Shown here one piece after another: positions 26,940 through 29,823 of a stretch of DNA of 64,000 bases (positions within the stretch are counted from its first letter, which is position 1; the number at the start of each line of letters is the position of its first letter). This DNA comes from Clostridia bacterium (GTDB lineage Bacteria; Bacillota; Clostridia; Acetivibrionales; STF1-152). The stretch lies in the NCBI GenBank assembly GCA_028280575.1, contig JANQLN010000060.1:1-64000 (forward strand), written 5' to 3'. Made by a program: the position numbers and the translations under genes. Under the pieces are notes generated by a model that was not told the origin of the DNA, did no database searches, and was given only the letters and a program-made list of their open reading frames with translations.

Positions 26940-27681
26940 GTTGCCTCCAATACGGAGGCGTGGATTGAAACCAGGTATATATGGATGCTTCTAGGCAAAA
27001 AGAAAAGTTGCCTCCAATACGGAGGCGTGGATTGAAACACGGCTGCAGTGGACGCACTTACAAATATCCTGAAGTTGCCTCCAATACGGAGGCGTGGATT
27101 GAAACGATTTAGTTGCAATGTTATCAAGACTATACGCGGGGTTGCCTCCAATACGGAGGCGTGGATTGAAACGATGAAGAAACAGCACAAAAGGTAAAGA
27201 ATTTTTGTTGCCTCCAATACGGAGGCGTGGATTGAAACTTACAGGTACAAGTCAAGGAGTTTAAGGCGTAAGTTGCCTCCAATACGGAGGCGTGGATTGA
27301 AACATTGGTGGAAAGGAAGTAACAGAAAAAGAAGCAATGTTGCCTCCAATACGGAGGCGTGGATTGAAACGTAAAAGCACTGCAGGATAAGAGTAGTACC
27401 CAGGTTGCCTCCAATACGGAGGCGTGGATTGAAACTTTTGTGAATAAGAATGATGTTGTTAAAATGTACGTTGCCTCCAATACGGAGGCGTGGATTGAAA
27501 CACAATAAGGTGTATCGTGAAATATCTGCTTATGGTTGCCTCCAATACGGAGGCGTGGATTGAAACCTGAATTTCTATGTCCAAAAAAGTTTTTATATTA
27601 TGTTGCCTCCAATACGGAGGCGTGGATTGAAACAATTACATTGGCCTGGGCACAAGTGCAGTTGCCTCGTTGTCTCCCATA
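26940..27681 (+). CRISPR. type I-C CRISPR array: 11 identical repeats, 11 spacers, degenerate terminal repeat
   Basis: The 32-bp repeat reads GTTGCCTCCAATACGG followed by AGGCGTGGATTGAAAC. Its GCCTCC/GGAGGC arms form the I-C hairpin, and the ATTGAAAC end gives the usual crRNA handle. Exact copies start at 26940, 27007, 27074, 27141, 27207, 27272, 27339, 27404, 27470, 27535 and 27602; spacers are 33-35 bp. A twelfth, decayed repeat starts at 27669 (GTTGTCTCC, then divergence), leaving a 35-bp last spacer. Perfect identity of the 11 repeats and an intact cas operon suggest a working system. Spacer targets could not be identified without a search. Confidence 0.98.
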
Positions 27682-28080: not shown

Positions 28081-28618
28081 ATGGAGGGGCAGAAAATCAA
28101 TCCGATCGAAATCAAAGGCCTTTGGCGATAAAGGATATTCCATAGACAAGCATAGTAATGGAAGTACATATATTGGTGAAGATCCCTTTGGACACCCCAG
28201 ATTTGATACAGACCGGACAGTGATAGGACAATATATGTATGAACTTAAATACTTGGGAAAGGTAAACAGGATAAAGAAATAGATGTTGTTCTGCCAGTTC
28301 CGTCGTCTAATACTAATAGAATGTTTCAACCGGTACCTGGTATAGCAAGTGAAATCGCTGCTTATTTAAAAAAGGCGTATAATTGATAATATACTTATCA
28401 AAACCAGTGATTTACAACTGAAAAACATTGATAGTGAGGAAAAATCAAAGATTGACCACACAATTATTGCATCAAAAAAGGCTAAAAGAAAATATAGTGC
28501 ATTAATTGTTGATGATATTTATGATACTGGGAAAACTTTAAATGATGCTGTTTCAGCGCTTAGAACTGACAGTAATCTTGTAAATGTATATGTGCTGACT
28601 ATGACAAAAAAGAGGTGA
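28081..28618 (+). pseudogene. phosphoribosyltransferase-fold gene broken by three frameshifts
   Basis: Reading across frames gives a coherent protein. It begins with an N-terminal part NPIEIKGLW (from ATG 28081), then after a shift near 28126 GYSIDKHSNGSTYIGEDPFG and GHPRFDTDRTVIGQYMYELK. After a shift near 28260 comes KEIDVVLPVPSSNTNRMF. After a shift in the A-run near 28370 comes the C-terminal part with ALIVDDIYDTGKTLNDA, the PRPP-binding loop of type I phosphoribosyltransferases (ComF-like). The final frame stops at 28616-28618. Three shifts in 540 bases, with intact genes on both sides, argue for a pseudogene, although sequencing errors cannot be excluded. It is followed directly by the SLOG gene, which probably was its operon partner. 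Confidence 0.7.
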
Positions 28619-28623
28619 ATGGT

Positions 28624-29151
28624 TTGAAGGTGTTTGTAGCTGGAGCGAGAGCCATAACTAATCTTGATGACAATGTGACGCAAAGGCTTTCAAATATGAT
28701 TATGAATAATATATCCATTTTGGTTGGGGATGCAAACGGTGTTGATAAAGCTGTGCAGCAGTTTTTTTATAAAGATGAATATACAGATGTTGTGGTTTAT
28801 GCCATGAAGGGTAAACCGAGGAATAATATAGGTAACTGGAGGGTCATGGATATTTACCCAATTGGGAATACTACCGGTTTTGATTATTATGCTACAAAGG
28901 ACCTGAAAATGGCGGAAGATGCTGATTATGGATTTATGATTTGGAATGGAAAAAGTAAGGGAACATTAAATAATATAGTTACCCTGATAATTCAGAATAA
29001 GAAAACTCTTGTGTATTTTGTTCCGGAAAGAAGGTTCTATACAATTACTAACTTCAGTAACTTGGACAACTTAATAGAAAAATGCGATGCTACCATTAAT
29101 GATTCAGTTAATAAGTTGAAAAGTAAACATGCCCAAATCACGATGTTTTGA
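28624..29151 (+). CDS. SLOG-fold (DprA/LOG-like Rossmann) nucleotide-binding protein
   Basis: 175 residues. The start KVFVAGARAITNLDD and the following ILVGDANGVDKAVQQFF show the Rossmann-type beta-alpha-GDANGxD pattern of the SLOG superfamily (YspA/DprA/LOG relatives). This group is thought to bind or process nucleotide-derived ligands and is often found in conflict systems. The second half, MAEDADYGFMIWNGKSKGT, also fits: these proteins typically keep an acidic AD.A....W.G.S.GT segment. TTG at 28624 is preferred because GAGGTG (28612-28617) precedes it at 6 bases; GTG at 28615 is the alternative and overlaps the phosphoribosyltransferase stop. The precise function is unknown. Confidence 0.7.
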   Translation: MKVFVAGARAITNLDDNVTQRLSNMIMNNISILVGDANGVDKAVQQFFYKDEYTDVVVYAMKGKPRNNIGNWRVMDIYPIGNTTGFDYYATKDLKMAEDADYGFMIWNGKSKGTLNNIVTLIIQNKKTLVYFVPERRFYTITNFSNLDNLIEKCDATINDSVNKLKSKHAQITMF

Positions 29152-29562
29152 TTACAAGCAAGTGGATATTTTTATATTGTATTTAAAAGGGATATTAATG
29201 ATTTAACACAAGTAGCGTAAAGAGACTATGGAAAAACACATTAATGAGTTATGCAATGAAGTATATGTTAATATGGTCTCATTGCTACCTCCAAAAGTAA
29301 ATTCATAGGTAATTATATAAACACAGACAAATAAATTATAAAATATATGTAATTTATTATGGAAAAAATTAATAAATAGCTTATTGTTAAAGGCAGCAGG
29401 TTTACCGTAAACCAGCTGTCTTTTTATGTATGTTCTGCTCTGCTCCCTGCAAAAGATGCTTTCGTTATATAGATTGGAATAACAATGTGTGTAAGGGCAT
29501 AGAATGATACAAAGAAGATTATATGACCTGTTCTGTTGTCATTTGGAGGGGGTACGGTTTTT
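29152..29562. other. intergenic region upstream of spoIIID
   Basis: Apart from the terminator at 29389-29425, nothing certain is present. CATAGAAT (29498-29505) preceded 13 bases upstream by GAATAACA (29477-29484) loosely resembles a mother-cell sigma-E promoter, which would suit spoIIID, but the match is imperfect. A 26-codon frame from 29228 has no good RBS and was not called. Confidence 0.35.
29389..29425 (+). terminator. rho-independent terminator
   Basis: AAAGGCAGC-A-GGTTTA pairs with TAAACC-A-GCTGTCTTT around a CCG loop, with one A/A mismatch and one G-T wobble, followed by T5. It probably ends the SLOG transcript and isolates the spoIIID-mbl region. Confidence 0.8.
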
Positions 29563-29823
29563 TTGAAAGGGTATATTGAGGAAAGAGCGATTGAGCTTGC
29601 CAGGTTTATTATTGATGAAGAAACTACGGTCAGGGATGCGGCTAAAAAATTTGGTATAAGTAAAAGTACGGTTCATAAGGATGTTACGGAAAGATTAGCG
29701 GATATAAAGCCCGAACTTGCTGAAAAAGTTCGAGAAATACTTGAGAGGAACAAGGCTGAAAGGCACATTAGAGGAGGAGAAGCCACAAAAGCAAAATATA
29801 AAGGAGATGAAAAAGCCGGGTAA
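29563..29823 (+). CDS. spoIIID: sporulation transcription factor SpoIIID
   Basis: 86 residues with the family's helix-turn-helix TVRDAAKKFGISKSTVHKDV and the basic C-terminal tail HIRGGEATKAKY that also contacts DNA. SpoIIID is the mother-cell regulator that represses and activates parts of the sigma-E regulon. The start is TTG 29563 (LKGYIEERAIELA), in line with known SpoIIID proteins (MHDYIKERT...), preceded by GGAGGGGG with a somewhat long 11-12-base spacer. It is followed by mbl, the same order as in Bacillus. Its stop codon lies in the loop of its own terminator. Confidence 0.93.
   Translation: MKGYIEERAIELARFIIDEETTVRDAAKKFGISKSTVHKDVTERLADIKPELAEKVREILERNKAERHIRGGEATKAKYKGDEKAG

What the first reader, a model, noticed from the sequence alone, without database searches (positions are those of the whole stretch)
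28081..29151. SLOG protein paired with a phosphoribosyltransferase beside the CRISPR array
The frameshifted PRTase (VDDIYDTGKT loop) and the intact SLOG gene abut and were probably one operon. SLOG and PRTase folds both handle nucleotide or ribose-phosphate ligands, and such pairs have been proposed in nucleotide-based conflict signalling. The position next to the array raises the possibility of an ancillary defence or dormancy module whose synthase half has been lost here.
Basis: partly seen in the sequence, partly recalled or inferred. Interest (0 to 1): 0.6.

Follow-up and report, generated by a model that had tools for sequence, protein, structure and literature searches.

The report
Relic of a two-gene toxin–antitoxin module
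Beside a CRISPR array lie an intact small DprA/SLOG-type protein and the wrecked gene of its partner, a phosphoribosyltransferase; intact copies travel on plasmids and in prophages across bacteria and look like a compact, unnamed cousin of the phage-defence toxin–antitoxin ShosTA, whose antitoxin carries a tail that looks made to grip the DNA-replication clamp.

Summary
In detail: an intact 175-residue SLOG/DprA-fold ORF (28624-29151) directly follows a phosphoribosyltransferase (PRTase) gene (28081-28618) broken by three frame changes and a deletion of about 15-18 residues. The pair is real and widespread: Bacillota, Alpha-, Beta- and Gammaproteobacteria, mostly on plasmids and in an E. coli P2-like prophage. 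It is not tied to CRISPR or purine genes. The evidence points to a compact toxin–antitoxin (TA) module related in fold to ShosTA/PsyrTA: the window SLOG model's best PDB hit is ShosA; the PRTase model hits ShosT; some SLOGs are fused to antitoxin-type HTH domains; intact PRTase was never seen without SLOG, whereas SLOG often survives beside a wrecked PRTase, under purifying selection (dN/dS 0.11-0.17 in three species). The window belongs to a clade in which no SLOG keeps an intact PRTase. New here: a conserved C-terminal motif (window QITMF; others QLKLF, QVSLF, QMSLL) resembling the beta-sliding-clamp-binding consensus QxxLF, in 13 of 26 independent lineages against 0.26 expected. Toxicity, neutralisation and clamp binding are inferred, not shown.

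The parts
28081..28618 (+). Decayed phosphoribosyltransferase (toxin/effector half): three frame changes, internal deletion of about 15-18 residues
   Evidence: pieces match PRTases of L002/L006/L009; profile hit to the 3' part 3.6e-23
28508..28537 (+). PRPP-binding loop VDDIYDTGKT of the PRTase, still readable
   Evidence: sequence; invariant DD..G in the family alignment; Pfam Pribosyltran 1.7e-5
28624..29151 (+). Intact small SLOG/DprA-fold protein, 175 aa (antitoxin/sensor half); alternative start GTG 28615
   Evidence: 57% identical to L002 and all family-invariant residues kept; AF2 pLDDT 90.9, best PDB hit ShosA 8zva
29134..29148 (+). C-terminal QITMF, candidate beta-clamp-binding motif in a low-confidence (flexible) tail
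   Evidence: conserved across the family at this place; tail residues 171-175 pLDDT <50
26940..27633 (.). CRISPR array next door (not part of the module)
   Evidence: 11 repeats; no array at any other copy of the pair

Best explanation
The pair is the relic of a compact toxin-antitoxin/abortive-defence module of the ShosTA/PsyrTA kind. The upstream PRTase is the toxin: a PRPP-using enzyme that, by analogy with ShosT, would disturb the nucleotide pool and replication (inferred). The downstream small SLOG/DprA-fold protein is the antitoxin and probably the sensor of disturbed replication. In most lineages paired with the PRTase it ends in a QxxLF-like peptide that I propose docks on the DnaN sliding clamp, so that the antitoxin works at the replication fork; in some Alpha- and Gammaproteobacteria a DNA-binding HTH domain takes this place (tail and fusions shown; docking inferred). 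In this genome, and in the whole clade of SLOGs to which it belongs, the toxin is dead or gone while the SLOG is kept, either as an anti-addiction gene or with a fork/DNA role of its own.
For: Pair conserved in Bacillota and Proteobacteria on plasmids and a prophage. Intact PRTase always with SLOG: all 13 intact plasmid copies opened and both full-length PRTases among 398 genomes; the two exceptions have a ruined PRTase. SLOG beside a ruined PRTase in the window, L002-L004, L008, L013, L017, L027, L032-L034, with dN/dS 0.11-0.17 in L032-L034. SLOG fused to HTH_37 or to PF21716 'Probable addiction module antidote protein'. Window SLOG model: first PDB hit ShosA 8zva, E 9.6e-5; PRTase model: ShosT 8zvb/8zvc/8zvd among the top hits. 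PADLOC: PRTases hit PsyrT (to 2.5e-17) and ShosT (to 1.4e-9). Tail motif in 13 of 26 independent lineages, shuffled mean 0.26, maximum 3 in 5000; consensus QL[S/D]LF/QxxLF, C-terminal in PolC (PMC12309361). ShosTA biology.
Against: No toxicity, neutralisation, phage or binding experiment is known to me for this family. SLOG matches ShosA/PsyrA only marginally by sequence (E 0.003-0.009), so orthology with ShosA is not shown, only shared fold and partner. Half of the lineages miss the strict tail pattern, and alphaproteobacterial orphans and HTH-fused forms lack it; the tail could bind something else. PRTase fold hits are led by PurR and ComF, not ShosT. Loci L002-L023 were found with the SLOG as bait, which favours intact SLOGs.
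Confidence: 0.72

Rival explanations
1. Sensor-effector defence pair, not TA: the SLOG protein senses phage DNA or a stalled fork and switches the PRTase on; it is an activator rather than an antitoxin.
For: This is what the authors of PMC9122126 suggested for the E. coli DprA-PRTase pair; SLOG/DprA proteins bind DNA; defence neighbours.
Against: With an activator, a lone intact PRTase would be harmless and should be common, and a lone SLOG useless; the opposite is seen, and lone SLOGs are under purifying selection.
Confidence: 0.13
2. Nucleotide-signal module: the PRTase makes a nucleotide messenger and the SLOG domain is its receptor or processor.
For: SLOG domains do bind cADPR variants in Thoeris (PMC9503650); ThsA SLOG is among the weaker fold hits.
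Against: The SLOG has no effector domain in Bacillota, and the fusions are to DNA-binding HTH domains; closest solved folds are ShosA/DprA and LOG, with ThsA far behind.
Confidence: 0.08
3. Ordinary metabolic or competence pair (ComF/DprA-like housekeeping, nucleotide salvage).
For: PRTase core is ComF-like (TIGR00201 4.5e-12); SLOG is DprA-like.
Against: Both far below family cut-offs (46 of 233 bits; 19 of 191 bits). Host has its own DprA elsewhere. Family is sporadic (6 of 398 genomes) and plasmid-borne (55 of 97 records conjugative); no purine genes recur beside it.
Confidence: 0.03
4. Ancillary module of the neighbouring type I-C CRISPR-Cas system.
For: Lies about 450 bases after the array.
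Against: No CRISPR-like array in any other locus with the pair or the SLOG.
Confidence: 0.02

Closest known systems
ShosTA toxin-antitoxin (E. coli; PDB 8zva, 8zvb, 8zvc, 8zvd)
   Same: Two-gene PRTase + DprA/SLOG-fold pair; SLOG model's best PDB hit is ShosA; found in P2-like prophages and on mobile elements.
   Different: SLOG is 175 aa against about 303 for ShosA, with only marginal sequence match; PRTase has its own N-terminal extension; conserved QxxLF-like tail or HTH fusion.
PsyrTA / RqlHI
   Same: PRTase aligns with the C-terminal PRTase part of PsyrT (best profile score, to 2.5e-17); DprA-like partner.
   Different: No RecQ helicase part; PRTase stands alone (about 195 aa); partner is much shorter than PsyrA (398).
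Retron type III-A PRTase effectors
   Same: PRTase as presumed effector; weak profile hit (9e-7).
   Different: No reverse transcriptase seen beside it; partner is SLOG.
DprA / ComF housekeeping families
   Same: Folds of the two partners.
   Different: Far below the curated cut-offs; host DprA is a separate gene.

Membership tests
ShosTA | PRTase with PRPP loop as one partner | tested here: met
   (loop intact in the family; in the window the reading frame is broken)
ShosTA | DprA/SLOG-fold partner encoded next to it | tested here: met
   best PDB hit 8zva ShosA, E 9.6e-5
ShosTA | Sequence match to ShosA model over most of its length | tested here: not met
   only E 0.0026 over 44 residues for the Listeria copy; none for others; the model itself also matches DprA in 372 of 398 genomes
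ShosTA | PRTase toxic alone, neutralised by partner; phage protection | not testable with these tools
   only indirect: asymmetric decay
PsyrTA | RecQ-type helicase fused to the PRTase | tested here: not met
   PRTases are about 190-196 aa; match only to PsyrT 532-686 of 689
DprA | Pfam PF02481 / TIGR00732 above cut-off | tested here: not met
   15.9 of 29.6 bits; 19.3 of 191 bits
ComF | TIGR00201 above cut-off | tested here: not met
   46.3 of 233.6 bits
Beta-clamp-binding proteins | QxxLF-type peptide in an accessible place | tested here: met
   13 of 26 independent lineages by a relaxed pattern, flexible C-terminus; window QITMF is a conservative variant, not the exact consensus
Beta-clamp-binding proteins | Binds DnaN | not testable with these tools
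   no complex prediction offered
CRISPR-Cas ancillary genes | Recurrent association with CRISPR loci | tested here: not met
   no array in the other loci

The most novel reading that the evidence does not exclude
A widespread, unnamed plasmid-borne TA/defence family whose antitoxin is a minimal SLOG protein tethered to the replication clamp, so that fork disturbance (plasmid loss, phage takeover of replication) releases the PRTase toxin; and whose antitoxin has repeatedly outlived its toxin and been taken into restriction operons (Mod-SLOG-Res) as a selected stand-alone gene.
Probability: 0.4. Interest if true: 0.78.

Novelty: new variant of a known kind. Interest (0 to 1): 0.58.

Why it matters
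How DprA-like antitoxins hold PRTase toxins in check is open: ShosA is said to bind DNA and perhaps recruit recombination factors. A minimal relative with a short clamp-docking tail would give a simple, testable answer: the antitoxin sits at the fork. It would also explain how such modules could sense phage replication, and it adds an unannotated TA family on conjugative plasmids of Klebsiella, Enterobacter, Agrobacterium and others, where the genes are now called 'ComF family protein' and 'hypothetical protein'.

Tried and rejected
CRISPR link: rejected, no arrays elsewhere. Purine salvage/ComF/DprA housekeeping: rejected by cut-offs and context. Phage origin: no match in phage records or viral contigs, though an E. 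coli prophage copy exists. Solved structures by sequence: none for SLOG. ShosA model as a discriminating test: useless, it matches DprA everywhere. L065 looked like a ShosTA pair but its ORFs were not convincing. Host PolC tail as a positive control: the gene runs to a contig edge, so its C-terminus was not read. L052-L054 (PRTase E about 1e-21, 254-271 aa, no SLOG) are taken as other ComF-like proteins, not family members. hhalign of SLOG against PRTase as a null check gave nothing.

Full report
What is there. The finding's two ORFs are real. The SLOG frame runs to the stop at 29149-29151; alignment with relatives (MKVFIAG...) puts its start at the TTG at 28624 rather than the GTG at 28615. 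The PRTase matter starts at ATG 28081 and ends at TGA 28616-28618. It reads with three successive frame changes (INPIEIKGLW / DKGYSID...LKYLGK / IDVVLPVP...AAYLKK / DNILIKT...TMTKKR) and, against its closest relative L002, lacks about 15-18 residues at the second change. A deletion in addition to the frame changes speaks for true decay, but resequencing was not possible.

The pair elsewhere. With the SLOG as query, 22 further loci came from genome contigs; PRTase lies directly upstream, intact, in L006, L009, L011, L014, L015, L018, L019, L020, L021. Plasmid records hold 97 SLOG homologues, 55 of them on plasmids typed as conjugative, and 62 PRTase relatives; the pair was read on plasmids of Listeria, E. 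coli, Klebsiella, Pantoea, Sinorhizobium, Xanthomonas, Polymorphobacter, Sagittula, Paracoccus, Acinetobacter, Methylorubrum and Roseomonas (with sequence analysis) and in a record labelled Neisseria gonorrhoeae. In E. coli it sits on 7 chromosomes of 5426 genomes; both copies read lie between tail genes and ogr of a P2-like prophage. In the window's phylum it is sporadic: 6 of 398 genomes.

Which half depends on which. SLOG intact with a damaged PRTase: window, L002 (in-frame stop), L003 (short relic, weak E 8e-3), L004 (residues 38-150 missing), L008, L013, L017 (N-terminal truncation), L027 (IS), L032-L034 (relics). SLOG with no PRTase trace: L005, L007, L010, L012, L016, L023 and alphaproteobacterial orphans. 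The reverse, intact PRTase with damaged or missing SLOG, was not seen: all 13 intact plasmid copies opened have the SLOG directly downstream, the two PRTase records without a full SLOG have a ruined PRTase (L058 deletion through both genes, L059 IS1), and both full-length family PRTases among the 398 genomes have a SLOG next door. L022 is damaged in the PRTase and ends early in the SLOG. Bait bias applies to L002-L023 but not to the PRTase-first searches.

Selection on the lone SLOG. Three species of one genus keep a lone SLOG next to a PRTase relic and have no other family PRTase at E 1e-20; pairwise dN/dS is 0.11-0.17. In the SLOG tree the window is sister to L002 (96) inside a seven-member clade (87) in which no member has an intact PRTase. 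Lone SLOGs sit between mod and res of a type III RM operon (L005), between a IIG enzyme and Wadjet JetA (L003), beside type I RM (L007, with the same gene lay-out in L010 and L012), or after dinD (L075, L077). So the SLOG does something worth keeping after the toxin has gone; anti-addiction and a role in DNA metabolism are both open.

Folds. AlphaFold2 models are confident (PRTase of L009 pLDDT 88.7, window SLOG 90.9). The best PDB hit of the SLOG is ShosA of E. coli APEC O1 (8zva, E 9.6e-5), then LOG-type and DprA structures. The PRTase hits PurR, ComF and, within the top 22, three ShosT entries (8zvb, 8zvc, 8zvd). By profile, PRTases hit PsyrT and ShosT, whereas SLOG hits ShosA/PsyrA only marginally; the family has no Pfam, NCBIfam or PADLOC model of its own in these libraries.

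Antitoxin-like fusions and the tail. In Sinorhizobium the SLOG is fused to HTH_37, in Xanthomonas and Agrobacterium to PF21716, 'Probable addiction module antidote protein': two different antitoxin-type DNA-binding domains. In the unfused, paired lineages the only conserved part of the C-terminal tail is its end: QITMF (window), QLKLF, QIKLF, QVSLF, QLKIF, QMSLL, QIALI, QMSLY, QIQMF. With one representative per 70% cluster, 13 of 26 core lineages match Q[LIMV]x[LIM][FLIVYM] in the last 12 residues; shuffled tails give a mean of 0.26 and at most 3 in 5000 trials; other ORFs give 2 of 555. The pattern was chosen after seeing the tails, so these numbers overstate significance somewhat, but independent lineages (Listeria, Klebsiella, Clostridia) agree. 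The described clamp-binding consensus is QL[S/D]LF, more generally QxxLF, and PolC carries it at its C-terminus (PMC12309361). In the window model the last five residues are the least confident part, as expected of a free peptide. Binding to DnaN is a prediction.

Mechanism. Shown: gene order, folds, decay asymmetry, selection, fusions, tail conservation. From the literature: DprA homologues are antitoxins in shosTA, psyrTA and rqlHI, and a DprA-PRTase pair protects E. coli against T7 and lambda (PMC9122126); ShosT is described as a phosphoribosyl transferase and pyrophosphatase that disturbs purine pools, with DNA duplications, filamentation and death, and ShosA as a DNA binder that may recruit recombination factors (review PMC12593503); ShosTA may respond to replication or recombination intermediates (PMC10732053). 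Inferred: the compact PRTase is the toxin, and the SLOG protein counteracts it at the fork via the clamp.

Verdict. A recurrent, unannotated TA-like module, new as a variant of ShosTA/PsyrTA; in this window only its antitoxin half survives, and its place beside the CRISPR array is incidental.

Noticed in passing
L005:4661-10227: SLOG gene lies between mod and res of a type III restriction operon with gaps of about 15-20 bases; no PRTase trace.
   Followed up: partly
L003:1758-8257: SLOG between a type IIG restriction enzyme and a Wadjet JetA gene.
   Followed up: partly
L075:5014-6481 and L077:5947-7438: Lone SLOG directly after dinD (DNA damage-inducible protein D) in two species of one genus.
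   Followed up: partly
L031:4992-5837, L027:4992-5852, L028:4992-5831: SLOG fused to two unrelated antitoxin-type HTH domains; internal QQSLLD / QADLLE before the PF21716 domain resemble clamp-binding peptides.
   Followed up: partly
L047:6001-7148, L060:5001-6148: PRTase-SLOG pair as cargo between tail genes and ogr of an E. coli P2-like prophage, near a Hok/Gef gene.
   Followed up: partly
L045, L046 (cyanobacterial plasmids): Short SLOG homologues (about 123 aa) a few genes from a second 'SLOG family protein'.
   Followed up: no
window 29560-29823: spoIIID follows the relic; the cas-array-relic block is followed by ordinary housekeeping genes (spoIIID, an MreB-like gene, flagellar genes).
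   Followed up: no
L016:5031-6496: Lone SLOG right after a gene that looks to me like an AbiEii-type nucleotidyltransferase toxin (no NCBIfam match at 1e-10).
   Followed up: no
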